DNA of 52,441 nt from a virus, in IMG/VR virus record IMGVR_UViG_3300030333_005141, positions 1 to 52,441 of that record; one strand, given 5' to 3'. Shown in pieces: positions 17,601 to 36,591 of this stretch (position 1 is its first letter; each line of letters begins with the position of its first letter). The notes beneath the pieces were generated by a model that was not told the origin of the DNA, did not search any database, and saw nothing but the letters and a program-made list of their open reading frames with translations. Made by a program: the position numbers and the translations under genes.

Positions 17601-20600
17601 TTTATATGGTTGCAGATAAGGTTATATTTGTTACTAAAAAGGGTGGAAGAGAAATTGAATTACAAGATATAAACAAAAGAACAAATTATACAGGTAGTGC
17701 TAGATGGGATGATGCAGCTGCTGCTAAAGAAGGTTCTAAAATAAAATCTATGCTTTTAGAAGAAGCTCATAATAGAGGTTATTATTTTAATGGTGGTAAA
17801 GGTGATAGTGGAAAAATGTATTTCTTTAAATACCACCCTTCATCTCAAGGATTGACAGCTCCTCAATTAAAAACTAAAGTTGATGGTGTTCTTATTGAAT
17901 ATTACGAAGGATTAAAACAAAGACATATAGATAGTGGTTCAGAAAAACCATATATGAGTTTTAAACAATTTCAAGATCAATACAATGCAATGAAAAAAGA
18001 ATTTGTTGCTGAACATCAACTTAATCCTGCATTAAAATTTTCTACTGGCAGAATAAAAGAAGCAGAAAAATATTTTGATGAAGGTTTTTTATCTAATATT
18101 GCATGGGAAGCTGAATTATATGGTGTTTCTGCAACTAATGAAGGTTTTGCTAGATGGACTGGTTATAACTCTTCTATTAAAGATGCTAAAGGTTTTAACA
18201 AAAGAAACCAAATATGGATGACTGATGGATTTGAGGTTGATAAAAGCTTTTATGTAAACACAGTATCTAATATAATGAAAAATAAAGGGCATGATAATGC
18301 TCGTACTATTGCTGATGGTAAATTAAGATTTAGATTAATAAGAGATGCAGACCCTAAAGATATTGTATTAACAGATAAAGATAAAGCTGAAATATATACT
18401 GAATCAACTGATGGTATGATATTACTTGAAGAAAATCATATGGATGCTTTAAATCTTTCTATGGGTATGCCAAGTTCTGGTCAAAATAAATCGTTTATAG
18501 TAGATAGAGATCCAACTCATGGTGCTTTTTTGGGTAAATTTATGTTTCATAAAGCTAGTCCAGAAGCATCTAAGCATATGCGTGATGAAGGTGTTGAAAT
18601 GTATGTTTTTGATAGCGCAGCAAAAGAAAAAGGTTCAAGAGAATTTGGTGAATTAAAGGTTGATGATAATTTAAATGCAAAATATACTCACCCTACCCCT
18701 AAAGAAGTTGGTCCTTTATTTGAAGGTTCTGGAAAAGGTTATTATGAATTAAATATTGATGCTATCAAAGGTTCATTATCTGAAAAACAAAGTAGCCACA
18801 TGTTAGATGCTCAACTTATTCCTAAACAGGTTATGGCCAATCTTGTTCCTCATGCTCAATCTGAAATAGATAGGGCAGTAATGGATGATTTTTTCAATGA
18901 AACTATAGGTAAAAAATATAAAGGTAATGAACAATATAATGAATCATTTAAAAAAGCTCTTGAAAAAGATGTTCTATCTGAAACAGAGCAAGCAGAATTT
19001 TTAAGTAACTTTAATGATTTAGGTGTTATGGAAGTAATTGATGCTATTAAGAACCCAAATCACCCTGAGTTTGTTACTAAATTATATCAAAAGATTTTAG
19101 ATAAAAATATGAGCGATTTAGGGCTTGAATATGAGTCTGGGCAAGTAGATAGATATACTTATGAACAAGCTCATGCAGAAGCTGCTAATATTAGAACTGG
19201 TATAGATAGAATGATGGATGTTTATCCTTCTGTTGAAATCTTTTTATATAAAGATGTTAGAAACTTTATACAAACTGCAATGAAAAATTTTGTTGTTAAT
19301 AAAGTAATAAGACCTAAATGGGATTATTCAGTTTCAGTTAGAATGAGAGGTTTAGACCCGTGGTTAGCTAAACAAGATAATTTAAAAGATTTAAATATAG
19401 GTAAAGGTTTAATTGAAGATCCAATTACAGGTAAAAAGGTTCAATCTAAAACTTATCTTAGAAATAAATATGGTGTAGAAAATGCTGATGAATTGTTTTT
19501 CTTAGATGATAGATACAAACAAACAACTTGGGATATATCTGAATTTATTACACTTAAAAAGGGTCAAAAAAGTAAAATGACTTTAGAGGAAATATGGGAG
19601 CAGTATGGACCTAGAAGAGATGGGACATATCCTAGTGAAAGAATGAAGGAGTTTTTTAAAACAATATCTATTCGTGTTCCTATGGATTCTATATCTGGTG
19701 CTCATAAACTTACATTTGCTGGATTTACTGGCGTTGATGGTCATGGTGGAATATTTCATCCTAGAACTATGAGAGCATTGGGTGGTGCTGACCTTGATGG
19801 TGATAAAGCATTTGCTTTCTTTGGTATGAAACCTGAATGGAAAGAAATGTATCATAGTAATAAAATGGAATTTGCAAAAAAAGTTCCAGGTACTAATGAT
19901 TTTACTATTAGTGATAATAAAACAGCGGGAGTACCTAAAATAGGATTAGATATTTTAAAAGAAACATTTGCTGCTGATCCATCAAAAGCTGCAGATATGT
20001 TTATTATGGATAAATTAGAAGGTAAAAATACTGAAGAATTGACTTTACAAGACTTATTAACATTTACTACCGCTGGCGATAAAGATGTTATGGCATTAAA
20101 AGCAAGTCCTTTAGGTAAATATACTGTTAGTTCAAGAATGGACATCTCTCAACGTGCAGCAGAAGGTCGTGCTCATTTAGGTCCAGCAGTAAGCTCAAAA
20201 CAAATTTTAAATGCTATGTATAATGCTTTAACTAATAATGATGTTCAAAGATATGTTAATAAAAAAAGTAATTCAGACTCTATTTCTGCAGAAGAATTTG
20301 TTAAGTTAAGTGAAAAAGAACAACAAAAATACAAAGAAGACTATTCAGAAGAATTAACATTCATTCCAGAAGGTCATCAAGAACCAGTTCAAATTAGAAT
20401 TACACCAAGAGAAGATTTAACATATGCTAGAGAACTGCAAAGAGCACAAATTGCATTTGGTTCTGACCCGCTTGATGAATTAGGTTTATCTGGAATAGAT
20501 AGATATTTTGACCTTTCATGGCATAGTATGTTTAAAACAGAAATAGTTGGAGCTGATCCTAAAACGGTTGACCCTAATATTCTAAGAAGTTTTGAACCTC

Positions 20601-23600
20601 ATAAGCATGCTAAGCAAGGATTATATAAAATATTTAAAGATTTTAATAGCGCTTATTTTAGTAAAAATTGGGTAGATGGAAGAAGATGGCATGCTACTGA
20701 AATAGCAGAAATGTCTAGAGCTATTACAAAATTAAATAGTAATCAAATGGATACTATGTTACCTCAAATGGTTAAAATATTAAAAGATATAGATTTTTCT
20801 GATGATATATCATCTAGAATATCTCTTAACAAATTAGATGCATCTTATGATTATCATCAAAAAGAAGTTGTTCCTAGATTACAAGAGCTAAATAACAGAT
20901 TATTAGATGTTGATGGCAATAAAATATCTGGAGGTGTTTTAGGAAGAGGGTATTTAGATGCTAAAGGTGTAGATTGGTCTAAAGGTAAAGGTTTTGCCTC
21001 TCCAAAAAATCCAATTATAGATGTAATGCTTTCTAAAAAACTTTTCGATGTAAATGAACGGTTAAAATATATTTTACCAGAACATAATGGTGCAGTTAAT
21101 TTTGAAAAACTATTTAAAGACAACTTTAAAAAGACTAAAGATTTTTATTGGCAGGCTAACCCTTCGTTTTATAAATCTGAAATATTAAAAAATGGTGGTG
21201 TAGAAAAATATAATGAATATAGAAGGCATGAGCAAGATTTTAGAAGAGAACAAATAGAACAATTATATAGAGATGCAACTGAGTTTATGCAATATAATGC
21301 TATGGATAGAAATTCGGCATTAAGAACAATAGAAGCTTTAGAAGAGTATTATAATGCTGGTGGATCTGCAGAATTTGCTGAACGTATAAGCAAAGAAGTA
21401 GAATATATTAAGCAGGTCGATATGGAAAGTAAGGTACGTAGCATAAAAGAAGAAGTGCTTAATAGTGATGAATATAAGTCTTTAAGTGAAAAAGAACAGA
21501 GAAAAGTATATAACACTTTAGAAGTTAAAGAAAAAACTTCAGGTTTAAGTGATAGAGATGAAATTAATTTGTTAATTAGAAAGTTTAAGTATGCTAACTC
21601 TTGGAAAGCAAAATTTGAACCTAATATGCAAGATCCAGAGAACCCTGGTATGATGACTTTAGCAGAGTCTAAGTTATTTGACACACTTATGTTGTCCTCT
21701 TATTATAGAGGTCCAGGTAATCAGCAATTAGTACAATGGCAAAAATTACCTGCTAATATGAAAAAGTTATTAAGTCCCTATATAAAAACATTAAAATATG
21801 AAAACTCTGGAACTTATTTCCATAAAACGGGTTTAAGTAGCGCCTATATTACAGACGCTTCAATTAAAAACTTTTTAGAAGGATATGCTAATGAATTTAG
21901 AAAAGTATATACTGATCCATCTGAGTCTATTGATGTTGATTTTAAAAAGGTATTGACCACAAAAGAAAAAGAAACTAAAGATGGTGTTGAGGTCCCTAAA
22001 TTACTATACGAAGAGGATTATGTTGGTATGGGGACATTAAGAGAAAAGGCAGTAGCTAAATTAAATAAAGATGAAATTCAATTAGTTGATGAATTGGCTG
22101 GACATATACAACATTATAGAGATAGTTTTAATGAAGGTGGTTTAACTTTAAATAAAATTGCTAGAAAAGTTGTTAAAAAAAATGTAGATGCGATGACAAT
22201 AGATGATTACAGGGTCTTAAATGGATATTTTAGACAAATGAGATCAGGTAATATGTTTATTAGTCCAGGTAAACTAACAGCAGAAGGTGCTGTAAGGTTA
22301 TCTGAAAGGCATCATATGCTGTTTCCTAGAATGGTTTCTGATGAGCAAATTGTAAAAGACTTTAAACTATTTGAAGAAAGAGGTTTGTTCCAAAATTATA
22401 ACGGAGAATGGGTTGAAGGAATGACTGGCAGACCTTCTCATTTTATAGAACATACACAATATGCTATTGGAACTATTCAAGATTACGCTACAAAATTAAA
22501 AGAAGATGAAATTAAAGCGTTTAATGAAAGAGTAAGTGAATTAACAGGTTATGATACAATAGAGAATGGTGATGCCTTTATTGAGGTTGCTACTGCTTTA
22601 AAAGATTATAATTATGTAAGAGACCCTAAAACTACATTTAGATCAGAAAATGATCGTTCAGTAGCTACAGAAGTTGCTGTTAAAAATTTAAAGGAGGCGT
22701 ATGAAAAAGCTGATTGGGAAAATGTCAAGGATACTAAAATTAAAGTCACTGTCAAAGCTGAGCCTGGTCCAAAAGGCCAAGAAATGGGCGGTATCATTGA
22801 AAGGACTGGTAAAGAAATTGTTGCATCAATAGATAAAGTTTTAACAGAACGTTCTATTGAGGTAATGAAATGGATTAAAGGGGACCATTGGGAATATATT
22901 AATGGTCAATGGGTAGAAGGTAACAATCCGTTAAAAAAATTATTTAAAAAAGACAAAGAAGGCAATATACTGTACCATGGTGATTCTAATGAGGTCCCTA
23001 TTATAGATATGCAAAAATTTTCTCGTTTAATGTTTGACCATATGAAAGCTGGAAAACAAATGGATATGAAGCTTGGTATGGATAATATGAGATATATTAA
23101 TAGAAACTTAAGAATTGAAATCTTAAAAGAAGAAGCACAAAGACCAGAATTTACAGAAAAACAAAAAAATGGTATTTTGAAGATAATTAAAAATCTATCT
23201 GATAGGCCTATAGAATCAACAGGTGTGATAGATCATAAGAATTACCATCCTCATATGGTTGAAAATAAAACTTTTGCTAGAGAATCTTTAGTTAAACAAT
23301 TAAATAAATTGATTGAAAAAAGAGATAAAGGTGAAGTAGATGCAGATATATTTGACAAAGAAGCTGCAAGTTTAATACATAGACACAAAACATTAACTGG
23401 TGAATGGTATATTGATGATATAGTAGATAATCAATTGTTTGAGACTGCATTGCAAAAAATCAATGAAAAGAAAATGGATGCTCCAGAAATAAAGCAAATG
23501 CTTAGCTCTCCTACAACTGGAAATATGATGAGTCGTACATCTATGCTTGCGGGATTCAAAAGAGATTTAGGGGCATGGGATGTATATCAAGCTAATTTAA

Positions 23601-25096
23601 TTGATGCTTATTTTAGACAAATGGGGCAAGCGGTATCCACTCACATGTTAGGTCAATTTAAAAATCATTTAAAAAAGATTCATAAAACAGAACCCGAACA
23701 AGTTACTGCTTGGGGTAATTGGATGCAAGATTATATATCTAGAAGTTTAGGTTCTCCTTCTAAAATACCTGAAGCTTGGATGGACCCAAATAGTCCTATG
23801 AAAGTTAGAGGTACTCCTTATTCTTGGTTTGCTGATAATCACGTAGCAGATCTTCTTAATAGAGTTAAAAAGAATATGGGCTTTAAAGGTGATGAAAGAT
23901 TACCTGAAGAATTAAGAGGTATAAATGAATGGGATTTAAGACACTGGTCTAATTTAGAAGCTAAATATCAGCTTGCTACATTACTTGCTCACCCTAAATC
24001 TGCTGTAGCTAATATATTTGGTGGTACATTACATACTATACAATCTGTTGGTTGGAAAAATTGGAAGAATGCTAAGAATATTACTTGGCTTAAAAAAGCA
24101 ATAGGTGGAGATAAAGTTCCAACTTGGGAAACAATGAAAGATGCTGAAAAATGGACTATTGGTCATGGTGTTGTTCCTGACTTTATATTAAATGAGGCTC
24201 AAACTAATCCTATATTTAAAAAAGGAAAATATAAGGCATTTTTAGAAGATGCATTGAAAAAAATACAAAAAGATCCATCTGTTAAAGATGAAACTTTACT
24301 TGATATTGCTAAAAGACACAATATTACTAAAAGCATGTTTGATAAAGCTGCTTGGTTTATGAGAGAGCCTGAAAGAATTTTAAGAAGAGATTCTTTTATT
24401 GCTCATTATTTACAAGCCAGAGAATTGTATGGGCATGCTAATATGGAATTAAATCATCCTATGTTAATTCATATGGCTAAAAAAGGTGTACAAGCAACAC
24501 AGTTCTTATATAGTGCACCGTTCAGACCAGCATTTAGTAATACTTCTCTTGGTAAAGTTATGACAAGATTCCAGACTTGGGCTTGGAACTCTGTTAGATT
24601 TAGAAATGATGTATATAGAGCAGCGAAAATATATGGTTTTAGACAAGGTACTCCTGCTTTTGCAAGATATAAAAGACAAGTTCTTACAGACATGTTTGTA
24701 TTTGGCTTGGCTAATGTATTTGCTTATTCTTTATTTGAATCTGCAATGCCTCAACCTTATGGTTGGTTTCAAGATACTGCAGATTGGGTATTCGGAAACG
24801 AACAAGAAAGAGATAGAGCATTCTTTGGGCAGTGGCCAACCGCAGTAGCTCCGCTCCAAATGGTTACTCCGCCATCTTTGCGATTGGTCCCTGCCACATT
24901 CAATGCTGTATTAAATAATGATTTTAGTAGAATCAGTGATTACCAATTATGGACAATGTTTCCTTTTGGAAGATTAGCTAGAGATACTAAAGGTATTATT
25001 GAAAACCCAATGAGAACTGTTGAAAAGACAACTGGTATACCTTATATGCAATTTGCCCGAGAAGCTACCAAATACAGAGAAAAAGATGAAGATTAG
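14696..25096 (+). CDS. Giant virion protein with double-psi-beta-barrel RNA polymerase signature
   Basis: A 3466-residue protein, last large gene of the late block. The N-terminus shares the YxIPF/Gly-rich module of the preceding gene. The key region is residues 1660-1703: R1660-V-P, then 39 residues from R1660 the motif GGADLDGD with D1699, D1701 and D1703. This matches the RxP...HP...xADxDGD arrangement of the catalytic double-psi-beta-barrel of bacterial beta-prime, of SGGDLDGD in eukaryotic RNA-dependent polymerases, and of YonO and crAss-like phage polymerases. Upstream, residues 1239-1313 (TDGMILL, GKFMFHK, DSAAKEKG) could be the partner barrel supplying lysines. The C-terminal 400 residues look like an ejection/virion domain. 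Gene position and size recall the N4 virion polymerase. Known: this motif binds catalytic Mg. Inferred: it is packaged and transcribes early genes. It has no T7-type polymerase motifs. Confidence 0.75.
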   Translation: MRDLQDLSSVVPEFKPFYNQDSTERLLNTYYQAPHLINDDLLSQIKDHAAHYNIPFEEERVQKDLGKQEFNLLRGIRQMGEGFFSGFTTFNVGEPSKNPYERIMRSVGELGGFVGYFPTAPLKALTAAKVLKSTALLDAARALRGNSVPLFLSRKATEKVAPIVSNTLKKAAPNIKNEAVQGAVKFMTDDKPSHIAEGAFNLGLASSISAWQLGVNEMLKAGLHGGVTGGVFRGVAEIFNKGGIPKTDILTGKQVLTASQKEDKILRAAASSLYDGLQSSYRGDTTPEQIYHYLLGAYFGANETTAGQAKYMKHVQKVEKKAASNAKALKRLDEDGKPYNWDTEIYDPELADPEGWKDLTKTEQEAVYDYILANHGTYGKQAMMTHRLMQEAGLEPNAEQLKLMGSNSKERYELDVAMNRINKKFETQKTADRAESIGRKFKVVPEAELTEDYIKNQGDRGYKKGKQQLVIQERSLVNIRTSKDRGPTNEDAAIPLKGAEIEKYNQSVNLDFPLFENELGTSVKYDAKSKKVIDDGSQAKAEFPLEFADKDINVEYKGKDNKVIKRDFKDWSPELYKIKEQVEEATGYNFDLARIDILDKDDYTKWEQENDPIFQRTDKRGPVQATVLIGEGRPLNLRHKDGNRNQIELNPGDIFLSKGVTNDNIKFKFDKSKKAGRTYRITFKRVKAKETPRALGEGQVLSDNILKLYTKGMSDDFLNFNKKAINTAFKVMEEKFPDSTVVAPENLGLHLKDTAPETYAYLMQKIQKLRAPVEKARQQLVQEDILDADFDKPDLDNDIGVMGEAVIQRKTNKFVSDYLSGQYEGIVDKTKRSLKIQELRGQLKDVLKENFKEFDINNSNKIDSDKFIADVEKKLGGIKFGEEARGDLRQLLMRQNQTKPLQKLSLNIDAKPSGIVKSGDTIIIGIQNPDGIYSKRNKAGVDEFQLESPKQIDHIWKEIAPKGEANDNVYMVADKVIFVTKKGGREIELQDINKRTNYTGSARWDDAAAAKEGSKIKSMLLEEAHNRGYYFNGGKGDSGKMYFFKYHPSSQGLTAPQLKTKVDGVLIEYYEGLKQRHIDSGSEKPYMSFKQFQDQYNAMKKEFVAEHQLNPALKFSTGRIKEAEKYFDEGFLSNIAWEAELYGVSATNEGFARWTGYNSSIKDAKGFNKRNQIWMTDGFEVDKSFYVNTVSNIMKNKGHDNARTIADGKLRFRLIRDADPKDIVLTDKDKAEIYTESTDGMILLEENHMDALNLSMGMPSSGQNKSFIVDRDPTHGAFLGKFMFHKASPEASKHMRDEGVEMYVFDSAAKEKGSREFGELKVDDNLNAKYTHPTPKEVGPLFEGSGKGYYELNIDAIKGSLSEKQSSHMLDAQLIPKQVMANLVPHAQSEIDRAVMDDFFNETIGKKYKGNEQYNESFKKALEKDVLSETEQAEFLSNFNDLGVMEVIDAIKNPNHPEFVTKLYQKILDKNMSDLGLEYESGQVDRYTYEQAHAEAANIRTGIDRMMDVYPSVEIFLYKDVRNFIQTAMKNFVVNKVIRPKWDYSVSVRMRGLDPWLAKQDNLKDLNIGKGLIEDPITGKKVQSKTYLRNKYGVENADELFFLDDRYKQTTWDISEFITLKKGQKSKMTLEEIWEQYGPRRDGTYPSERMKEFFKTISIRVPMDSISGAHKLTFAGFTGVDGHGGIFHPRTMRALGGADLDGDKAFAFFGMKPEWKEMYHSNKMEFAKKVPGTNDFTISDNKTAGVPKIGLDILKETFAADPSKAADMFIMDKLEGKNTEELTLQDLLTFTTAGDKDVMALKASPLGKYTVSSRMDISQRAAEGRAHLGPAVSSKQILNAMYNALTNNDVQRYVNKKSNSDSISAEEFVKLSEKEQQKYKEDYSEELTFIPEGHQEPVQIRITPREDLTYARELQRAQIAFGSDPLDELGLSGIDRYFDLSWHSMFKTEIVGADPKTVDPNILRSFEPHKHAKQGLYKIFKDFNSAYFSKNWVDGRRWHATEIAEMSRAITKLNSNQMDTMLPQMVKILKDIDFSDDISSRISLNKLDASYDYHQKEVVPRLQELNNRLLDVDGNKISGGVLGRGYLDAKGVDWSKGKGFASPKNPIIDVMLSKKLFDVNERLKYILPEHNGAVNFEKLFKDNFKKTKDFYWQANPSFYKSEILKNGGVEKYNEYRRHEQDFRREQIEQLYRDATEFMQYNAMDRNSALRTIEALEEYYNAGGSAEFAERISKEVEYIKQVDMESKVRSIKEEVLNSDEYKSLSEKEQRKVYNTLEVKEKTSGLSDRDEINLLIRKFKYANSWKAKFEPNMQDPENPGMMTLAESKLFDTLMLSSYYRGPGNQQLVQWQKLPANMKKLLSPYIKTLKYENSGTYFHKTGLSSAYITDASIKNFLEGYANEFRKVYTDPSESIDVDFKKVLTTKEKETKDGVEVPKLLYEEDYVGMGTLREKAVAKLNKDEIQLVDELAGHIQHYRDSFNEGGLTLNKIARKVVKKNVDAMTIDDYRVLNGYFRQMRSGNMFISPGKLTAEGAVRLSERHHMLFPRMVSDEQIVKDFKLFEERGLFQNYNGEWVEGMTGRPSHFIEHTQYAIGTIQDYATKLKEDEIKAFNERVSELTGYDTIENGDAFIEVATALKDYNYVRDPKTTFRSENDRSVATEVAVKNLKEAYEKADWENVKDTKIKVTVKAEPGPKGQEMGGIIERTGKEIVASIDKVLTERSIEVMKWIKGDHWEYINGQWVEGNNPLKKLFKKDKEGNILYHGDSNEVPIIDMQKFSRLMFDHMKAGKQMDMKLGMDNMRYINRNLRIEILKEEAQRPEFTEKQKNGILKIIKNLSDRPIESTGVIDHKNYHPHMVENKTFARESLVKQLNKLIEKRDKGEVDADIFDKEAASLIHRHKTLTGEWYIDDIVDNQLFETALQKINEKKMDAPEIKQMLSSPTTGNMMSRTSMLAGFKRDLGAWDVYQANLIDAYFRQMGQAVSTHMLGQFKNHLKKIHKTEPEQVTAWGNWMQDYISRSLGSPSKIPEAWMDPNSPMKVRGTPYSWFADNHVADLLNRVKKNMGFKGDERLPEELRGINEWDLRHWSNLEAKYQLATLLAHPKSAVANIFGGTLHTIQSVGWKNWKNAKNITWLKKAIGGDKVPTWETMKDAEKWTIGHGVVPDFILNEAQTNPIFKKGKYKAFLEDALKKIQKDPSVKDETLLDIAKRHNITKSMFDKAAWFMREPERILRRDSFIAHYLQARELYGHANMELNHPMLIHMAKKGVQATQFLYSAPFRPAFSNTSLGKVMTRFQTWAWNSVRFRNDVYRAAKIYGFRQGTPAFARYKRQVLTDMFVFGLANVFAYSLFESAMPQPYGWFQDTADWVFGNEQERDRAFFGQWPTAVAPLQMVTPPSLRLVPATFNAVLNNDFSRISDYQLWTMFPFGRLARDTKGIIENPMRTVEKTTGIPYMQFAREATKYREKDED

Positions 25097-28137: not shown

Positions 28138-28721
28138 TAAGACCTCCTTATTCGTTTAACTTTTTCTAATTTAAAACCTGTAATACCTAAACCATCTTTT
28201 GAAGCTTCTAGAAAGTCTCTTCTGGCTTTCTTTTTGTCTATTTCGACTTTATATCTCTTATAATTATCGCTAATAGATTCTTCATCTGTTATAACTATAG
28301 GTCCCCAAGTTTCATATACTTTATAACGTGCAGTATCTGTAATTAAAATCCCGTCATTACCGCAAGTTTCTACAATAAGTGGTATCAACTCTTTATTAAA
28401 GTAATCTTCTGTTCTAGAAATAGCGTTTTTTCTGTTTCTTAAACGCTTTATTTCATCAGTTAATGCTTTAATTTCTGCATCAATATTACCTTTTTTCTTG
28501 TTCATTTCTACAATCATATGATCAAGACCACTTACTTTAGTTGTAAGTTCATTTTTTATTTCAGCTATACCTTTTTCTATACGTTTTTCTTCCTCTTCCC
28601 ATTCGTTATCCTGTTCTATTGAACATTCAATTGAATTACGTTTTAAATCAAGGTCGTCTTTTTCTAACTGAAGTTCTATCAATGATCCAACCAGATCTCT
28701 TGATGTTAGCTTAGTAGCCAT
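28137..28721 (-). CDS. Gp157-like protein
   Basis: A 194-residue protein. The central coiled coil with EIKALTDEIKRLRNRKNAI and the C-terminal pattern WGPIVITDEESI, then YKVEIDKKKAR, then GLGITGFKLEK match the siphovirus Gp157 family. Those proteins usually lie beside phage recombination and SSB genes; the family founder was linked to phage resistance, and the biochemical role is unclear. The ATG at 28721 is chosen over the frame's first ATG (28781) because GGAGGACAG precedes it and the overlap with the helicase stop shrinks to 11 bases. Confidence 0.7.
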   Translation of the reverse strand: MATKLTSRDLVGSLIELQLEKDDLDLKRNSIECSIEQDNEWEEEEKRIEKGIAEIKNELTTKVSGLDHMIVEMNKKKGNIDAEIKALTDEIKRLRNRKNAISRTEDYFNKELIPLIVETCGNDGILITDTARYKVYETWGPIVITDEESISDNYKRYKVEIDKKKARRDFLEASKDGLGITGFKLEKVKRIRRS

Positions 28722-30531
28722 CTGTCCTCCGTAATCTGAATGAAGGAGTCCATTCAAGTTCTGTCTCAAATAACTCTCCATCTGTGTTTTTAAATAGTTT
28801 GACAGCCTTTTTAGGGCTATCAGCTTGACCGTTTAGTCCAATTACTTTTCTGGATGCATTTTCTATTGCTCCGCTACCTTTACCTGCATATAAATCAAGT
28901 ACTTCGTTTCTACTATAATCTCTACTTACTTGAGATACCTGTATTATAATAAGGTCGTTGTTAACTGCCATGTTGGATAAACCGTGGGATATATATTTTA
29001 TCTGTTCATACTCGCCTCTCACCGATGGAGGAGTATCAACTAAATCAATATAATCAACGATTACCATAGCAGGTTGCAACTCTGTTATTTTTGTCTGTAT
29101 CTGTTCAAGCGTAGGAGCTACAGTTTGAATTGTTATATGCGCAACTTTATCCTTTACTAATGGATAAATACTTTGATAATTGGACGACACATTGTCTTTT
29201 GATTGATTAGATGCAATCTGAAGATTTCTTCTATGCATATACCAACCTGCCAATTCTAAAGATAAATACAACGTTGGGATTTGTAGATTTGTATCAATTC
29301 TATCGTTTAAATGGTCATAACCTAGAGCAATATTTTGTGCTAAGGTTGTTTTGCTTGACCCTGTGGGTCCAAAGATAGTGATTAAATCTCCTGGGTAAAA
29401 TTGACAATCAGCCTCAACACCTAGTGCCTTACCTAAATTGTAACTTTTACCTGTAAAATCTGTTGTTAATCTATCTGTTAACTGTTTTTGTAGTTCTACA
29501 TTATCCATAATATCTACTAAATAGTCTTTTCTTTTATAATGAATACATTTTGGATTACAATGTTCTTTCATTAAATGATCTTGGCATCCGTATTGGTATC
29601 CTTTATTATAAGCATACTCTACTTGAGATACTACTTCCTGTTCATTTAGACTACCGTCATTCCATTCTAATAATGCAGCTTTTGCAGCTCTAGAAGATAT
29701 ACCGCTTCTTCTATAATGAGAAACTATTCTTAATAATGTTGTGTGTCTGCTACCAACTTGTGGTCCAGCGCCATACATTCTTTGAACACATGTTACAACT
29801 TTATTTGGTTCTGATACTTTCCCCATAGGTTTTGATGTAATAGAAGCTTCTACTATATGATCTTCTAATTCTCCATCACCTACTAACTCTTCGTAAGGAA
29901 ATTCAGTTCTTGCTGTCTTTGCTAAATCGTGTATTTGCTGCCAAGTACATTGTACTGCTTCTTTATAAGTAAGTGGTACTTTATATAAGCCAGTTTTCTT
30001 GTTTATTGTATGAGCTACACGATATAGTCCAGTTCTAGTATAAACCATAGGGTCTATTTCTGGAAACAATTTCATCATAGTTTCTTTCATATGAAAAGGT
30101 AAATCTTCACTAGCTGTGAAGTTAAAAACACTATTTGGTATTATTATATGGTAACCAGTTCCTGAAAAATATACTCTGAAGTTTTCTGGACTTAATTCAA
30201 GGTCATTTATTAATTTATAAACTATTCCTTGCATTTTATCAAGAGTAAATTTATCAGTGTTTTGTTCTCTATCAATATCAATCAAAATATTGTCAATAGA
30301 GCGAGGTCCATAATAATGTTTTATAGTGTTTTTAGAATTTCCATAATCATAAGCATCTTCATTATAAAGATACATAGATCTATATAACGGGACACTATTT
30401 ATATGTTTAGCAAGTTCCTGTTTTGGTATAAATACCCCCCGTTTACGAGGGGTATCTATTGCTATTTCTATATAATTATAGATTTTCAACTGAGATACCT
30501 GATGCATCAAAGTTTTCTGAGTCTGTACCAT
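28711..30531 (-). CDS. Primase-helicase fusion
   Basis: About 600 residues. The N-terminal half looks like an archaeo-eukaryotic primase: IDIDRE with Asp at 85 and 87, SGTGYHI at 123-129, and a later Arg/Lys box near 171-185. A Cys-rich linker (CNPKCIHY, about 325-332) precedes a RecA/DnaB-type helicase with Walker A GPTGSSKTT at 388-396 and a hydrophobic Walker B ending in VDY. It probably primes and unwinds at the phage fork; with no phage DNA polymerase present it would feed the host enzyme. Start is uncertain: ATG 30531, ATG 30507 or TTG 30489, all inside the end of the SSB-like gene; none has a strong ribosome site. Confidence 0.85.
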   Translation of the reverse strand: MVQTQKTLMHQVSQLKIYNYIEIAIDTPRKRGVFIPKQELAKHINSVPLYRSMYLYNEDAYDYGNSKNTIKHYYGPRSIDNILIDIDREQNTDKFTLDKMQGIVYKLINDLELSPENFRVYFSGTGYHIIIPNSVFNFTASEDLPFHMKETMMKLFPEIDPMVYTRTGLYRVAHTINKKTGLYKVPLTYKEAVQCTWQQIHDLAKTARTEFPYEELVGDGELEDHIVEASITSKPMGKVSEPNKVVTCVQRMYGAGPQVGSRHTTLLRIVSHYRRSGISSRAAKAALLEWNDGSLNEQEVVSQVEYAYNKGYQYGCQDHLMKEHCNPKCIHYKRKDYLVDIMDNVELQKQLTDRLTTDFTGKSYNLGKALGVEADCQFYPGDLITIFGPTGSSKTTLAQNIALGYDHLNDRIDTNLQIPTLYLSLELAGWYMHRRNLQIASNQSKDNVSSNYQSIYPLVKDKVAHITIQTVAPTLEQIQTKITELQPAMVIVDYIDLVDTPPSVRGEYEQIKYISHGLSNMAVNNDLIIIQVSQVSRDYSRNEVLDLYAGKGSGAIENASRKVIGLNGQADSPKKAVKLFKNTDGELFETELEWTPSFRLRRTDGY

Positions 30532-31081
30532 TCATAACAACGTTATTTGCAGGTTTACTCATATCTTCAGGAGCCTCTTTCAAGAAACCTTTAGATCTTA
30601 AAAACTCAATGTAACTTTCAAGCTCTTTTTCACTTCCAGCACTTACAGGTAGTACTTTGTTGTGAACTCTTGTATAAGCTTGTCCGTTTTTAGATAACTC
30701 TTTAAATATAAATATAGTTAGATTTACTCCACAATATTTATTTAAATGATCACAAATATTAGAAATTGGTTGACCATCTTCAGTTTCCCATTTTCCGTCT
30801 TGATTGACACCACCTTGTTCTCCAAGTGCATCTAGGAAAAATGTGATTCTTTTTAATAAAGTACAGTCTTTAATCCTGCCGTCTGCTTCTCTATCAAATG
30901 AACCTGCTATTTTCATAACTCTAGGATACTGAGAGCCTTCTACTTCAAATTCAACATTTAAGTAGACATCTGCCCAACTCCATTTACTTGAATCGTCAGT
31001 GATATTGACTATTTTACCTGTTTTTATTCCTAGCCAATCACCACCGCCTCCGCTTTTTATTTCAGAACGCATTATTGCCAT
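30476..31081 (-). CDS. SSB-like protein paired with Sak4-like ATPase
   Basis: A 201-residue protein with a beta-rich body (residues 15-150) and an acidic, disordered tail ending FDASGISVENL. Position directly behind a Sak4-like ATPase is where phages commonly encode a single-strand DNA-binding protein, and the size fits. There is no classic acidic tip at the end. The ATG at 31081 directly follows the preceding stop, with AAGGAGG upstream. The DNA-binding role is inferred from context and fold-like pattern, not from a diagnostic motif. Confidence 0.6.
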   Translation of the reverse strand: MAIMRSEIKSGGGGDWLGIKTGKIVNITDDSSKWSWADVYLNVEFEVEGSQYPRVMKIAGSFDREADGRIKDCTLLKRITFFLDALGEQGGVNQDGKWETEDGQPISNICDHLNKYCGVNLTIFIFKELSKNGQAYTRVHNKVLPVSAGSEKELESYIEFLRSKGFLKEAPEDMSKPANNVVMNGTDSENFDASGISVENL

Positions 31082-31945
31082 CTATTTTTCCTCCTTATAG
31101 GATTTTATTTCAGCTACTATTGATTCATAATCAAAAGGTAACTTCTTTTGTGCTAATGGTCTTAATCTAGAACCTACCATTCTTTCATCATAACCTTCGA
31201 ATGATACCATATATTCTTGAGTAGACCTGTCAATTGTTGCATAACCGATTACATCAGCTTTTGCACATAATGTTCTACCTAGTCCACTAGGTAATGAAGG
31301 TGCTAATTGAGCCTTATCATCTGTCATTGCTGTTTGTTTTGCATGAGATATTAATATTAAATTACCTCCAACTTTTTTCATAAAGTCTTGTAATTTCTTT
31401 ACAATATCTGCATTTTTACGTTTTGCTGCTGCCCAATCAGCTCCCCAGGATCCATCACCCATTTCCTTAATACCTAAATCAATTTTTACTACATCTTCAA
31501 TCCAAGAATTAACTTGGTCAATAGTATCAATTATTATAGTATCATAAGGGTATTTATCCCAGTTTTTCATTAAATCACTAGTAATTTCAGCAAGTGAATA
31601 AACTTCCATAGGTTTGCCTTTATTTGGCCCACCTCTAAAGTAATAACCTCTTTCATTATTTGGTACGTACTCAAGTACTGGTTTACCATTTTTCATTACT
31701 TTTTTACCGTCTTTTTCTTGCTCTCTTACTGGAGGATTTAATGCGTGACAAGTAACAACATTTGCACCATCTACAAAATCTGCTCCTAAGTCAGTGTCTA
31801 TTACTAAACATCCTTCATTTCCTTTAGGTGACCATTTTGCTGCTTGTGTTGTTTTACCTGATTTTGGTTGTCCAATGAAATACCAGGTTATACCACCTGG
31901 AAGATCTCCTGTCCAATCCGATTTTATTTGATTTACTTTTAGCAT
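31082..31945 (-). CDS. Sak4-like RecA-family ATPase / annealing factor
   Basis: A 287-residue AAA_24-type protein. Walker A GQPKSGKTT lies at residues 25-33 after PGGITWYFI; CLVIDTDLGA follows as the first core strand, and Walker B is YDTIIIDTIDQV. LILISHAKQ near residue 200 is the sensor strand. Sak4 proteins are short RecA-like ATPases that promote single-strand annealing and are normally paired with an SSB, as here. The ribosome site TAGGAGTAAT precedes the ATG. Three structured elements lie just upstream. Confidence 0.8.
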   Translation of the reverse strand: MLKVNQIKSDWTGDLPGGITWYFIGQPKSGKTTQAAKWSPKGNEGCLVIDTDLGADFVDGANVVTCHALNPPVREQEKDGKKVMKNGKPVLEYVPNNERGYYFRGGPNKGKPMEVYSLAEITSDLMKNWDKYPYDTIIIDTIDQVNSWIEDVVKIDLGIKEMGDGSWGADWAAAKRKNADIVKKLQDFMKKVGGNLILISHAKQTAMTDDKAQLAPSLPSGLGRTLCAKADVIGYATIDRSTQEYMVSFEGYDERMVGSRLRPLAQKKLPFDYESIVAEIKSYKEEK

Positions 31946-32193: not shown

Positions 32194-32874
32194 TTAACAA
32201 GCTATTTCTTCTGTGATCTGTGGTTTTACGAGATTTTCCGTTCGTAAATTTACAGGACCTAACGACCCCCAAATATACGAATAATATAGGTTATTTTGCA
32301 ACACATTAAATGCTTGCGCTAACCCATATGATGCTGCCAAACCTCCACAAAATATGGTATGTTTAGCTGTGCATGATTCATCTGGAATATCTTTTGAAGG
32401 AACATAAGAATCCATGAAATAATCGTCATCTCTTGTAACGGTTATTATTTCAAACCCTAATGCTCCCATCCTCATATCAATCAGAAATTCTCTGTCTGGA
32501 TTTTCTTTCCATTGTTTATATACTGCAAGTCTACACTCCATATTATCGGGTGTAAGAAATACTTTATTTTCTAATGGTAATCCAGTTTGCCAAAATGTTG
32601 GACTTGCTTTGACATTACACTTACTATTTAATGTGTTAAGTGTTTCTTTTGCTGCTGTTACTTTAAAAAGATTTAAATACTTTTCTGGCCATGATGTTGT
32701 GGATAAATTATGTTCCTCTAACTGATCAGGGTCCCAGACAGTTATTTCTTTAAATCCCATTATTGCAGCATTTTGTAATAGGGCTGAACCAATACCTCCA
32801 GCCCCAATTACAGTAATCTTATCTAATCTTGATTGATCGATAAGGTCTTTGTTTCTAAGGTAACGATCTGCCAT
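32194..32874 (-). CDS. E1/ThiF-like ubiquitin-activating enzyme
   Basis: A 226-residue ThiF/E1 adenylation domain. GAGGIGS lies at residues 24-30 (nucleotide loop), WDPDQLEEHNLS at 47-58 (the DxDxxxxxN motif), and LIDMRMG near 131-137 (a catalytic Asp). C168 in DESCTAKH resembles the CTxK context of the thioester cysteine of Uba1. Two oddities: the Arg expected after NL (NLxRQ) is replaced by Thr, and no zinc CxxC pairs are present. E1 enzymes adenylate the C-terminus of a ubiquitin-like protein and pass it to an E2. It overlaps the JAMM gene by 20 bases; GGAG precedes the ATG. It is the last gene of the four-gene cassette. Confidence 0.85.
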   Translation of the reverse strand: MADRYLRNKDLIDQSRLDKITVIGAGGIGSALLQNAAIMGFKEITVWDPDQLEEHNLSTTSWPEKYLNLFKVTAAKETLNTLNSKCNVKASPTFWQTGLPLENKVFLTPDNMECRLAVYKQWKENPDREFLIDMRMGALGFEIITVTRDDDYFMDSYVPSKDIPDESCTAKHTIFCGGLAASYGLAQAFNVLQNNLYYSYIWGSLGPVNLRTENLVKPQITEEIAC

Positions 32875-33748
32875 CTTCGTCTACTCCTATCTCTTCTAAG
32901 CGTTTATCTCTAACTTCTGTTTTTATTCTTCCTCTATCCCAATCTAGCATTATGTTGTCATATTCTATCCAAGTGCCATAGTCTAAAGGTTCTTCTTTTA
33001 AGCCATAAGATTGCATATATCCGATTTCATCAACATGGTCGTTGTATCGTTCTGCTTGTGCTTCTATTGCATCTTTTTCTTTTTTGGCTGAAAAAGCTTC
33101 TTTTTTGTTTAACTGATAACTAGATGAGTCAAAAAGAGTTCCTTGTTGCCGTCTTCCAAATCCATATCTTGTAATCGACAATGTTTTCTCTTCTTTTTTG
33201 GCGTTCTTTTTGATGTTCTTCTGCTGCTGTTTCCAGTCCTTATCTATATTGATAACTTCTTCAGCTTTGACATCAATTCCTTGAACAATTTCTATTTGTC
33301 CAAATTGATCGGGAAAACTAAAACCAAAGTAAAACTCTTTTTGTGGTTTAGTTGATACTACTAATGAGTAATAAAAGTTTTCATTAGCACCGTCTTCACA
33401 TTGTTGTTCATCAGTAGGTGAATAATATGCTCCCATACTATGATGTGAATGTATGTTTCCTTGTTCCCATTTTTTGCCAATTTCAGGATATTGTTTTCTT
33501 AATTTACCCCATATCTCTTGAAGTTTATCTCCATCCCAATCAGTTGATGTTGCATCACCTAAATGTAAGGGGTGAAAATACTCTAAAGTTATTTTTAAAG
33601 GGTATTTTTTCTTTCCAGGTAGATTTTGATATTCTACTGAATACCATGCTGGTCCAGACCATTCTCTACCTTTATTCTGTTGAAGAAAATAGCGTACCTT
33701 GTTCAACATTTGGTTGGTTATTAATAGTGAAGGTTTCTTTAAGCTCAC
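32855..33748 (-). CDS. JAMM/JAB-domain isopeptidase of the ubiquitin-like cassette
   Basis: A 297-residue protein. The N-terminal 140 residues are a complete JAMM metalloprotease: E29 (REWSG), H100-S-H102, then S110 and D113, the exact HxHx7Sx2D zinc pattern. This fold removes ubiquitin-like proteins or trims their tails. The C-terminal half is charged, with QGTLF at 202-206, a candidate sliding-clamp-binding motif also present at the E2-like C-terminus. The start is GTG at 33748 with AAAGGAGG 8 bases upstream, so it overlaps the E2-like gene by 77 bases. Catalytic residues are seen directly; substrate and partner are inferred from the neighbours. Confidence 0.88.
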   Translation of the reverse strand: MSLKKPSLLITNQMLNKVRYFLQQNKGREWSGPAWYSVEYQNLPGKKKYPLKITLEYFHPLHLGDATSTDWDGDKLQEIWGKLRKQYPEIGKKWEQGNIHSHHSMGAYYSPTDEQQCEDGANENFYYSLVVSTKPQKEFYFGFSFPDQFGQIEIVQGIDVKAEEVINIDKDWKQQQKNIKKNAKKEEKTLSITRYGFGRRQQGTLFDSSSYQLNKKEAFSAKKEKDAIEAQAERYNDHVDEIGYMQSYGLKEEPLDYGTWIEYDNIMLDWDRGRIKTEVRDKRLEEIGVDEDGRSLP

Positions 33749-35096
33749 GCTTTAACCTCCTTTCATCTTTGTTTAATTGTTCAAGTGATTTCTTTAAAGC
33801 TATACTTTTTAAGTTGTTATATTTAAATATCAATCCATCTGTATCTTCTGCAGTTTTTATTGACTTTAACCAACTTCTTCCATTAGCTTTATCAGGGTTG
33901 TTCTTTCTAAGCATTACAAGATATTGTCCTATTTTTGTACCAGCTGATTTTAATTCTCCAGCAAATTCATATTCTGTTGAATTATTCTCAAAAGGTTTAA
34001 GTAGTTCTTTTAACTCTTTAATATCTTCTTCATGCTCAGCTATAGTTGCGCTATATCTATCGCTTACTATCCATCTATATGAATTGCCTCTTCGTAATTC
34101 ATTTAGTTTATAAGCCATATCCCTTAATTTACCAGATAATTCTGGATCATTTATTCCATCAAAATCCATAAATAATTTTGTAAAGAATATTTTATTAAAG
34201 AATAAAGACTCAACAAGAGACATTTCCCCTATTTCCATAGCTAAATAAATATAACCCATCATCTTTTGATAGTTTACTTTATCTGAAAATCCATAATCCC
34301 CTTCATAAGAATATCTATTTAATTCACCTCTAGTGAAATGCTTAGTTCTTAGATAGGGTATATCAAAAAATCTAAATAATTCATTAAACTTTTTTGATAA
34401 ATGTCCTTGCACTTCAAATTTTCCATAACATGGAATATCTTTTGGAAAGTTCCATCGCATTGGATCTTCTCCTAAAGATACAATATCTAAAGAGTGAGGG
34501 TCATCTACTTCTGATTCAAAAGTTTCCCTTACCTCAATTGGTGTATGAAGTTGATATTTAATAAACTTCTTTTTCCAATGAGTTCCAGCTACATATGTAC
34601 TTCTACCATTATAAGATTCTAAATAGTTTCTTATATATTGTATAAATAATAGAAAATTTCTATTACTCCAATGTGTTGATAAATCTGTAGCAAATGAACC
34701 TAAGCAAGGTGATCCGTCAGATATATGAGGGTGTGATGCATATTCAGTTTTTATTTCAGTTCCATTTGTATATAAATAATAAAATTTAAATACTGGAGCT
34801 TCATCTATTACGGCTACATGTACCCAAAAATCTCCCATATGAAGATGTGGTCTATACTTAACAACAACATCTTTTATTTGTATGAGCGTTACATATTCTT
34901 GTATTACATCATTTGTGCCACTTTCTTGATTCCAAACATTCCTTGTAACGTTAACAACATCAAATTTATAGTTTTTCTCTATTAATTTTGCTTGTTTAGC
35001 ATAAGGTAATGGTGGAGCTTCAGAATGACTAAATGTAGAGTCCCATTCTAATAATGTTGTTTCTACTAAACTTAAGTCAAAAGGTTTAAGATCCAT
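33672..35096 (-). CDS. E2-like ubiquitin-conjugating enzyme with long C-terminal extension
   Basis: A 474-residue protein. Residues about 35-165 follow the E2/UBC pattern: beta strands, then HPH (122-124, replacing HPN), DGSPCLG with candidate catalytic C131, and W143 leading a C-terminal helix (FLLFIQYIRNYL). E2 enzymes take the modifier from E1 as a thioester and transfer it to a target. Residues 170-474 match nothing I recognise: a mixed region, then a coiled coil (420-450), ending EQGTLFSSTE. Q466-F470 fits the bacterial clamp-binding consensus QxxLF. TTGGAGAATAT precedes the ATG at 35096. The E2 assignment rests on the HPx...C pattern and on lying between a modifier gene and JAMM/E1 genes. 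Confidence 0.75.
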   Translation of the reverse strand: MDLKPFDLSLVETTLLEWDSTFSHSEAPPLPYAKQAKLIEKNYKFDVVNVTRNVWNQESGTNDVIQEYVTLIQIKDVVVKYRPHLHMGDFWVHVAVIDEAPVFKFYYLYTNGTEIKTEYASHPHISDGSPCLGSFATDLSTHWSNRNFLLFIQYIRNYLESYNGRSTYVAGTHWKKKFIKYQLHTPIEVRETFESEVDDPHSLDIVSLGEDPMRWNFPKDIPCYGKFEVQGHLSKKFNELFRFFDIPYLRTKHFTRGELNRYSYEGDYGFSDKVNYQKMMGYIYLAMEIGEMSLVESLFFNKIFFTKLFMDFDGINDPELSGKLRDMAYKLNELRRGNSYRWIVSDRYSATIAEHEEDIKELKELLKPFENNSTEYEFAGELKSAGTKIGQYLVMLRKNNPDKANGRSWLKSIKTAEDTDGLIFKYNNLKSIALKKSLEQLNKDERRLKRELKETFTINNQPNVEQGTLFSSTE

Positions 35097-35106
35097 ATAT
35101 TCTCCA

Positions 35107-35168
35107 ATCTTAAAGAGAGAATGCTTGGGTCTCCTCCTCGACAGATTCCCAAGACTTACATCTCACTT
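35107..35168 (-). other. Structured element between modifier and E2-like genes
   Basis: CTTGGG pairs with CCCAAG (35124-35153), with outer GAGATG/CATTCTC pairing with one bulge. It sits in the 5' leader of the E2-like gene; the ribosome site is just downstream and free. Confidence 0.5.
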
Positions 35169-35185
35169 TATATATTAATAGTTTA

Positions 35186-35431
35186 CTAGTTGCCTGACTT
35201 ATTCTTTGCTTTCATGATCAGAATAGTATCATTTTCTACTAGTTTACCTGCTGGTGGAACTGTTCTTTCATCACCGTCTTCTCCAATAACTTGCACTACA
35301 CTATCAGCCATATCCACATCATAAGCTCTTAATACATCGCTTAATTTCTCAAATTTACCTGCTTCTAGCTTGTTATTTTTATTCCATGATGAAACTTCTA
35401 CGTTTACACCGTTATTTGCTGTTCTAGGCAT
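35186..35431 (-). CDS. Ubiquitin-like / ThiS-like beta-grasp modifier
   Basis: An 81-residue protein, the size of ubiquitin. The strand-helix-strand pattern VNVEVSS, FEKLSDVLRAYDV, VVQVIGEDG, then PPAGKLVENDTILIMKA fits the beta-grasp fold, with the late (D/N)DTIxI motif shared by ThiS, MoaD and prokaryotic ubiquitin-like proteins. It ends KNKSGN: one Gly before a terminal Asn, not Gly-Gly. Removal of the Asn would expose a C-terminal Gly, a job the JAMM protein could do. It starts at ATG 35431 with AAAGGTG upstream, directly after the zinc-finger gene. The fold is inferred from pattern and from E2/JAMM/E1 neighbours. Confidence 0.75.
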   Translation of the reverse strand: MPRTANNGVNVEVSSWNKNNKLEAGKFEKLSDVLRAYDVDMADSVVQVIGEDGDERTVPPAGKLVENDTILIMKAKNKSGN

Positions 35432-35432
35432 A

Positions 35433-35690
35433 TTACACCTTTTCTGAGGACGCTTGTGGTTTGTTTTGAGAATCAGGATTGTGTCCTCTTTTAAATCCTG
35501 TATCTCTTACATAACATCTGTTTTTAAAATCTCTAACAATTTCTATTGGTACAGTGTACTGAGCATTACATGCATCACATTTCCATACTTCCCACTCTAC
35601 ACCATCTCCATAATAGTTAAACATTAAATTATCAGGTATACAGCAACCATTTTTATTAGAGATGTCTTTAGTTTTTGGATATAACGTCAT
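35433..35690 (-). CDS. Zinc-binding small protein upstream of the modifier gene
   Basis: An 85-residue protein with GCCIPDN, then WEVWKCDACNAQY and a later RCY: the cysteines could hold one zinc. It has a strong ribosome site (AAGGAGGATAT). It lies immediately before the ubiquitin-like gene and could belong to the same cassette, for example as a small zinc-finger adaptor or ligase-like factor, but it has no complete RING pattern. Confidence 0.6.
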   Translation of the reverse strand: MTLYPKTKDISNKNGCCIPDNLMFNYYGDGVEWEVWKCDACNAQYTVPIEIVRDFKNRCYVRDTGFKRGHNPDSQNKPQASSEKV

Positions 35691-36357: not shown

Positions 36358-36591
36358 TTATTTTAACATTAAATCTTTCTTTTTAGGTTTTACGTCCATA
36401 AGCTTAAAAGCTTCAAGTTTAGTCTTGATATAATTAATTTGTTTACCAAAACCGTTGTTTATTTCTATGGTTTCTTTAATATCATAGTGTAAATCTTTAT
36501 TAATTATAGATTTCATCACTATTCTGTGATCTTTTGCCATATCATCAAAAGAATTGTAATCAGTATTGTCTGATTTAGTATTATTTGCCAT
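36358..36591 (-). CDS. Hypothetical small charged protein
   Basis: A 77-residue helical, Lys/Asp-rich protein with AAAGGAGGCATA before the ATG. Its last coding bases adjoin the leader of the 32-residue membrane protein, and its start touches the stop of the upstream zinc-finger gene. No family is recognised. Confidence 0.65.
   Translation of the reverse strand: MANNTKSDNTDYNSFDDMAKDHRIVMKSIINKDLHYDIKETIEINNGFGKQINYIKTKLEAFKLMDVKPKKKDLMLK

What the first reader, a model, noticed from the sequence alone, without database searches (positions are those of the whole stretch)
32194..35431. Complete phage-encoded ubiquitin-like conjugation cassette (modifier, E2-like, JAMM, E1-like)
Four adjacent leftward genes encode a beta-grasp protein of ubiquitin size, a protein with an HPH...C131 E2 pattern, a perfect JAMM protease (E29, HxHx7Sx2D) and an ThiF/E1 protein with GAGGIGS and DxD...N motifs. 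Three overlap or are coupled, so they are one operon. Bacterial E1/E2/JAMM operons (Bil, CBASS Cap2/Cap3) are known from defence; here a lytic-type phage carries the full set beside its replication genes. This differs from tail JAB/NlpC proteins of lambda-like phages, which lack E2. I cannot check whether this exact cassette is described.
Basis: partly seen in the sequence, partly recalled or inferred. Interest (0 to 1): 0.93.

Follow-up and report, generated by a model that had tools for sequence, protein, structure and literature searches.

The report
Phage-encoded ubiquitin-like protein-tagging system
This ocean phage carries, inside its DNA-replication gene block, what looks like a complete miniature ubiquitin system (a small protein tag, two enzymes that activate and attach it, and a protease that trims or removes it), and the same four-gene set recurs in essentially all sampled relatives and in cultured gut crAss-like phages, which suggests it is core phage equipment and not a borrowed bacterial defence.

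Summary
Four leftward genes encode an 81-aa beta-grasp protein, a 474-aa protein with HPH-x6-C, a JAMM protease and a ThiF/E1 protein. Catalytic residues are invariant across very divergent homologues: E2 H122-P123-H124/C131; JAMM E29/H100/H102/S110/D113; E1 GxGGxGS, D48/D50, N56, K71, D110 and C168. The modifier's only invariant residues are S79-G80, followed by 0-97 residues, as expected of a processed Ubl; in a sister phage clade the gene in this position ends in Gly-Gly. All 51 E1-sampled loci with enough sequence, and 25 of 26 helicase-sampled loci, have the whole set. The same order occurs in cultured crAss001 (gp79-gp76) and Flavobacterium phages, there with 100-200-aa tails after (K/S)SG. 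Weakest link: Foldseek did not match the E2 model to a solved UBC structure, although active-site spacing, secondary-structure order and a profile alignment agree with UBC. I found no paper describing this system. Best reading: a phage-borne, reversible Ubl-conjugation pathway that is core to the early/replication module; its targets are unknown.

The parts
35186..35431 (-). Ubl modifier precursor, 81 aa, ubiquitin-like beta-grasp, ends ...NKSG-N
   Evidence: profile hits SAMP2/PF1061/ThiS; ThiS, SUMO-like and SAMP2 Pfam hits among homologues
35192..35197 (-). Codons for invariant S79-G80, the inferred mature C-terminus (one residue follows)
   Evidence: only invariant columns in 30 homologues; sister clade ends in GG
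33672..35096 (-). E2-like protein, 474 aa: N-terminal alpha, beta-meander, HPH/C, alpha domain plus a C-terminal helical region
   Evidence: hhalign to UBC P=0.0029
34725..34733 (-). HPH motif (H122-P123-H124), counterpart of E2 HPN
   Evidence: invariant in 35 homologues
34704..34706 (-). Predicted catalytic Cys131 of the E2
   Evidence: invariant in 35 homologues; Cys followed by a hydrophobic residue kept in the GG clade, crAss-like, Flavobacterium and Xanthomonas phages
32855..33748 (-). JAMM/JAB metalloprotease, 297 aa, GTG start
   Evidence: E29, H100, H102, S110, D113 invariant
33410..33451 (-). JAMM core H100-S-H102-x7-S110-x2-D113
33672..33748 (-). 77-nt out-of-frame overlap of E2 and JAMM genes
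   Evidence: overlap of 22-188 nt in most homologous loci
32194..32874 (-). E1-like ThiF/MoeB-family adenylyltransferase, 226 aa, single adenylation domain
   Evidence: Pfam ThiF 4e-17; profile hits to SUMO/NEDD8/Ub E1s at about 1e-10
32785..32805 (-). Nucleotide-binding GAGGIGS of the E1
32371..32373 (-). Predicted E1 catalytic Cys168 in S-C-T-A-K-H-T
   Evidence: invariant; found in all but one E1 ORF examined
28711..31945 (-). Downstream replication/recombination block in the same orientation: Sak4-like ATPase, conserved 201-aa protein, primase-helicase
   Evidence: order kept in most relatives

Best explanation
The four genes encode a phage-borne, reversible ubiquitin-like conjugation pathway. 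The JAMM protease trims the Ubl precursor after the conserved (S/G)-G; the E1 adenylates that glycine and takes it as a thioester on Cys168; the E2 accepts it on Cys131 and transfers it to target proteins, probably choosing targets through its own C-terminal helical region because no E3 gene accompanies the set; the JAMM protease can also remove the tag. It is part of the phage's own core early/replication module, not an occasional accessory. Shown here: sequence families, invariant catalytic residues, beta-grasp fold, Ubl C-terminal motif, strict co-occurrence and order, place among replication genes in three phage lineages. Inferred: conjugation, thioester relay, JAMM processing, and that targets are phage replication/recombination or early host proteins.
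For: Invariant active sites in all four proteins. The Ubl slot ends SG or GG; two members of the SG alignment end exactly at G, others carry tails of up to 97 aa, and crAss-like/Flavobacterium versions carry 100-200 aa after (K/S)SG, which would require processing. Ubl fold and SAMP2/ThiS/SUMO kinship. E1 profile nearest SUMO/NEDD8/ubiquitin E1s, about 1e-10, with one conserved Cys in a P-C-T-like motif. E2 HPH-(I/V/L)-...-C-(L/F) with H-to-C spacing 9-10, invariant; hhalign to UBC P=0.0029, aligned on HPN...C and the following helix, versus 0.31 or higher in 10 column shuffles. Order Ubl-E2-JAMM-E1 in 51/51 E1-sampled loci and 25/26 helicase-sampled loci. E1 and JAMM distances track each other (r=0.91) and the helicase (r about 0.6; permutation maximum below 0.17). 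Same set in crAss001 beside primase and UDG, and in Flavobacterium phages.
Against: Foldseek found no UBC structure for the E2 model. Pfam does not recognise the E2. The Arg that follows the conserved Asn in canonical E1/ThiF enzymes (N-x-x-R) is missing in all E1s examined (N-L-S-T-T and similar), so the adenylation site is atypical. No E3, no target and no experiment. SG in place of GG in the window's own clade. One helicase-sampled locus (L148) had no recognisable Ubl ORF.
Confidence: 0.8

Rival explanations
1. Counter-defence or host takeover: the cassette tags host defence or regulatory proteins, and is kept because every host has them.
For: Sits in an early-type block; bacterial Ubl systems act in phage-host conflict (PMC11354881 for Bil; PMC10097602 for CBASS).
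Against: Anti-defence genes are typically patchy and mobile (general knowledge); this set is near-universal and collinear with replication genes across E1s down to about 16% identity.
Confidence: 0.25
2. Sulfur-carrier pathway: the Ubl is a ThiS/MoaD-like thiocarboxylate carrier for a modified nucleotide or cofactor.
For: Ubl and E1 belong to ThiS/ThiF-like families; JAB genes occur in some sulfur-carrier operons (PMC1779556).
Against: An E2-like gene with an invariant HPH/Cys accompanies them; no rhodanese, sulfurtransferase or base-modifying gene was seen recurring next to it; E1 profile is nearest to Ub/SUMO/NEDD8 E1s.
Confidence: 0.08
3. Phage-carried anti-phage defence (superinfection exclusion) like Bil, tagging virions of competing phages.
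For: Same four enzyme classes as Bil (PMC11354881).
Against: Inside the replication module, not among morons; present in nearly all relatives; fails several Bil features; no similarity to PADLOC models except the generic E1 hit and one weak E2 hit outside the catalytic domain.
Confidence: 0.1
4. The 474-aa protein is not an E2 but a substrate or scaffold with a different fold; only Ubl, E1 and JAMM are functional.
For: No Foldseek UBC match, no Pfam match.
Against: HPH and Cys are the only fully invariant residues in 35 very divergent homologues, and the Cys-hydrophobic block persists in the GG clade, crAss-like and Xanthomonas phages.
Confidence: 0.12

Closest known systems
Bacterial Bil (BilABCD) ISG15-like defence system
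   Same: Separate genes for Ubl, E2, JAB/JAMM and E1
   Different: BilA has two Ubl domains and BilD an inactive plus an active adenylation domain; BilB has Cys138 followed by Glu/His (CEHH) (PMC11354881). Here: one Ubl domain, one adenylation domain, His before the Cys; phage core genome, not a bacterial defence locus
CBASS type II Cap2 (E2-E1 fusion) and Cap3 (JAB); 6A-MBL cap2_3
   Same: E1, E2 and JAMM chemistry; E1 hits E1-E2 profiles
   Different: No fusion; a dedicated Ubl gene is present; no CD-NTase recognised next to it
Iyer et al. 2006 class 6d (Ub-like, JAB, E1, E2, alpha-helical protein) and the PRTRC system
   Same: Four-component set in unfused genes
   Different: 6d E2s lack the classical His and have one after the Cys (PMC1779556); PRTRC models score far below cut-off (18 vs 144.75; 13.2 vs 101.8)
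Lambda/T1 tail assembly TAPI (Ubl) and TAPK (JAB-NlpC)
   Same: Phage-encoded Ubl plus JAB
   Different: No E1 or E2; tail genes; here no NlpC domain was found and the place is the replication module
Archaeal SAMP/UbaA/HvJAMM1 and Caldiarchaeum Ub operon
   Same: Ubl profile is nearest SAMP2; JAMM partner
   Different: Viral; SAMP systems lack an E2 (own knowledge); no RING E3 recognised here

Membership tests
Ubiquitin-like modifier | Beta-grasp fold | tested here: met
   AF2 pLDDT 71 model; the listed top Foldseek hits are mostly Ubl-fold domains
Ubiquitin-like modifier | C-terminal Gly exposed directly or by processing | tested here: met
   invariant SG plus tail; GG in sister clade; the processing itself is inferred
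Ubiquitin-like modifier | Covalent attachment to proteins | not testable with these tools
   needs biochemistry
E1/ThiF superfamily | ThiF adenylation domain with GxGxxG, D, N, K, D | tested here: met
E1/ThiF superfamily | Arg after the Asn (N-x-x-R) | tested here: not met
   N-L-S-T-T or similar in all E1s examined
E1 (thioester-forming) | Conserved catalytic Cys | tested here: met
   C168 invariant
E2/UBC | Catalytic Cys with upstream H-P-N/H motif at canonical spacing | tested here: met
E2/UBC | UBC fold | tested here: inconclusive
   secondary-structure order alpha, beta-meander, HPH/C, alpha, hhalign P=0.0029, but no Foldseek UBC hit
JAMM/MPN+ protease | E plus HxHx7Sx2D | tested here: met
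Bil system | Tandem-Ubl BilA and two-domain BilD E1 | tested here: not met
   81-aa single Ubl; 226-aa single-domain E1 (Bil features from PMC11354881)
PRTRC system | NCBIfam PRTRC_ThiF / PRTRC_A above cut-off | tested here: not met
CBASS Cap2/Cap3 | E2-E1 fusion next to a CD-NTase | tested here: not met
   separate genes; downstream neighbours are Sak4-like ATPase and primase-helicase

The most novel reading that the evidence does not exclude
Tailed phages encode their own complete ubiquitin-like conjugation pathway as a core component of DNA replication/early infection, shared between abundant marine phages and gut crAss-like phages and with both SG- and canonical GG-ended modifiers: a viral branch of ubiquitin signalling in bacteria, separate from the known bacterial defence operons.
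Probability: 0.5. Interest if true: 0.95.

Novelty: new variant of a known kind. Interest (0 to 1): 0.87.

Why it matters
The bacterial Ubl-conjugation operons compared here (Bil, CBASS) act against phages. A complete system owned by phages, kept as a core gene set in at least hundreds of IMG/VR contigs and in the cultured crAss001, would mean that phages use protein tagging for their own replication or takeover. It opens a little-explored branch for the origin of ubiquitin signalling and is directly testable in a cultured gut phage whose genes gp76-gp79 are annotated 'thiamine biosynthesis protein', 'metalloprotease domain containing protein' and 'hypothetical protein'.

Tried and rejected
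Pfam, PHROGs, NCBIfam and PADLOC name only the E1 clearly. tblastn of the E2 in phages and a viral scan with E2 or JAMM alone found nothing in viral contigs; the conserved E1 was the way in. A PDB profile search with the whole E2 alignment gave only unrelated hits. Foldseek of the E2 against PDB: no UBC. No relatives in 84,980 bacterial/archaeal species genomes with the E1 patterns. Prok-E2_B: no match in two relatives' genomes. Eleven helicase-sampled loci first looked as if they lacked Ubl and E2; inspection of nine of them showed GG-ended Ubls and a variant E2 there. Promoter scan uninformative (fewer sites than in shuffles). Literature searches and the main texts of two crAss papers gave no description; most subscription papers could not be searched.

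Full report
OBSERVATION. The window is one IMG/VR virus record of 52,441 bases with tailed-phage terminase, portal, head and tail-fibre genes. Downstream of E1 in the same orientation come a Sak4-like ATPase, a conserved 201-aa protein and a DnaB-type primase-helicase. E2/JAMM overlap by 77 nt and JAMM/E1 by 20 nt; most homologous loci show an E2/JAMM overlap of 22-188 nt.

HOMOLOGUES. A viral scan with E1 found 66 loci, and one with the E1 alignment 240. Gene order Ubl, E2, JAMM, E1, usually followed by Sak4, the 201-aa protein and the helicase, is conserved. All 51 loci with at least 3.2 kb upstream of E1 have all four parts. As sampling by E1 could bias this, I sampled by the helicase: 513 relatives, 80 kept. 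All 19 loci with enough upstream sequence have E1 and JAMM, and 25 of 26 loci with a complete E2-position ORF have a small ORF ending in SG or GG in the Ubl slot.

MODIFIER. Across 30 Ubls the only invariant residues are S79-G80. Two members of that alignment end exactly there; others have tails, up to 97 aa in the wider set. In a sister clade the same slot reads NKVGG-stop, VKGG-K, KTGG-Q or NTGG-AA. In crAss-like and Flavobacterium phages a Ubl-like N-terminus is followed by (K/S)SG and a 100-200-aa tail. Background for small ORFs ending in (S/G)G plus 0-3 residues is about 3% (my subtraction). The AF2 model (pLDDT 71) matches ubiquitin-like folds including SUMO, TtuB and UBX; the profile finds SAMP2, PF1061 and ThiS; members hit ThiS, SUMO-like and SAMP2 models.

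E1. ThiF domain 4e-17; profile nearest SUMO, NEDD8 and ubiquitin E1s, about 1e-10. Invariant G24/G26/G29/S30, D48/D50, N56, K71, D110 and C168. C168 lies in a motif of the form C-[TSN]-x-K-[HA]-T, mostly preceded by Pro or Ala, present in all but one E1 ORF examined; from my own knowledge this resembles the catalytic-Cys segment of canonical E1s (P-x-C-T). The Arg of N-x-x-R is absent throughout, an unusual feature left unexplained.

E2. Among 35 homologues as low as 13% identical, only H122, P123, H124 and C131 are invariant besides the near-invariant start Met. H-to-C spacing is 9 or 10 (two further regex matches gave 7). The AF2 model (pLDDT 86) gives helix, long beta-meander, HPH/C loop, two helices, then a helical region: the order of UBC plus one strand. 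Foldseek against PDB gave no UBC among the matches shown. I therefore call it E2-like by active site and context, fold unproven.

JAMM. E29, H100, H102, S110 and D113 are invariant and kept in the GG clade and crAss-like phages, although Pfam Prok-JAB is below its cut-off.

DISTRIBUTION. tblastn with the Kolpuevirus E1 finds 78 phage records. crAss001 gp79-gp76 form the same set between primase and gp75/UDG; Fpv phages have it after primase and UDG. A Xanthomonas jumbo phage has a ThiF, an 892-aa protein with HPHM...SLCLGSF and a 141-aa protein ending KASGG. No relatives in bacterial genomes with the E1 patterns. E1 and JAMM distances correlate at r=0.91, and with the helicase at about 0.6, far above permutations, consistent with a set that is inherited together and largely with the replication block.

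MECHANISM. Processing by JAMM, activation by E1, thioester relay to E2, transfer to targets, removal by JAMM. Shown: families, residues, Ubl fold, termini, synteny. Inferred: reactions and targets. Co-location with replication genes in three lineages makes replication/recombination or early-takeover proteins the likeliest targets (about 0.4 for replication specifically).

NOVELTY. Iyer et al. 2006 (PMC1779556) describe bacterial Ub/JAB/E1/E2 operons and the lambda TAPI/TAPK pair, not this. The main texts of two crAss-like phage papers do not mention ThiF, JAB, metalloprotease or ubiquitin. Bil, CBASS and PRTRC membership features fail. New variant of a known kind, in an unexpected owner and role.

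Noticed in passing
L115 (KU599877, Flavobacterium phage Fpv1) 5495-7787: The JAMM gene is interrupted just at its HSH motif by an opposite-strand ORF that looks like a homing endonuclease; FpV4 (L068) is uninterrupted.
   Followed up: partly
L112 (Xanthomonas phage PhiXhv-15) 1709-5588: Jumbo phage with a GG-ended Ubl-like C-terminus (KASGG), an 892-aa protein with HPHM...SLCLGSF and a ThiF; no JAMM seen nearby.
   Followed up: partly
L045 7371-7820 and L057 3905-4383: Ubl tail of about 70 aa in L045; in L057 the matching tail lies in another frame, suggesting a frameshift (error or programmed).
   Followed up: no
window 36358-36591 (-): 77-aa ORF with clear homologues that lie directly upstream of the Ubl in L003, L009 and L014; in the window it lies about 0.9 kb away.
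   Followed up: no
window 35433-35690 (-): 85-aa protein with a CxxC zinc-ribbon-like stretch directly upstream of the Ubl; relatives in L005 and L018.
   Followed up: no
window 14696-25096 (+): Giant ORF of 3466 aa.
   Followed up: no
L128-L179 (11 loci): E2 variants with HP(Y/F) or FPY and longer spacing to the Cys, found with GG-ended Ubls: a natural test of co-evolution between Ubl terminus and E2 active site.
   Followed up: partly
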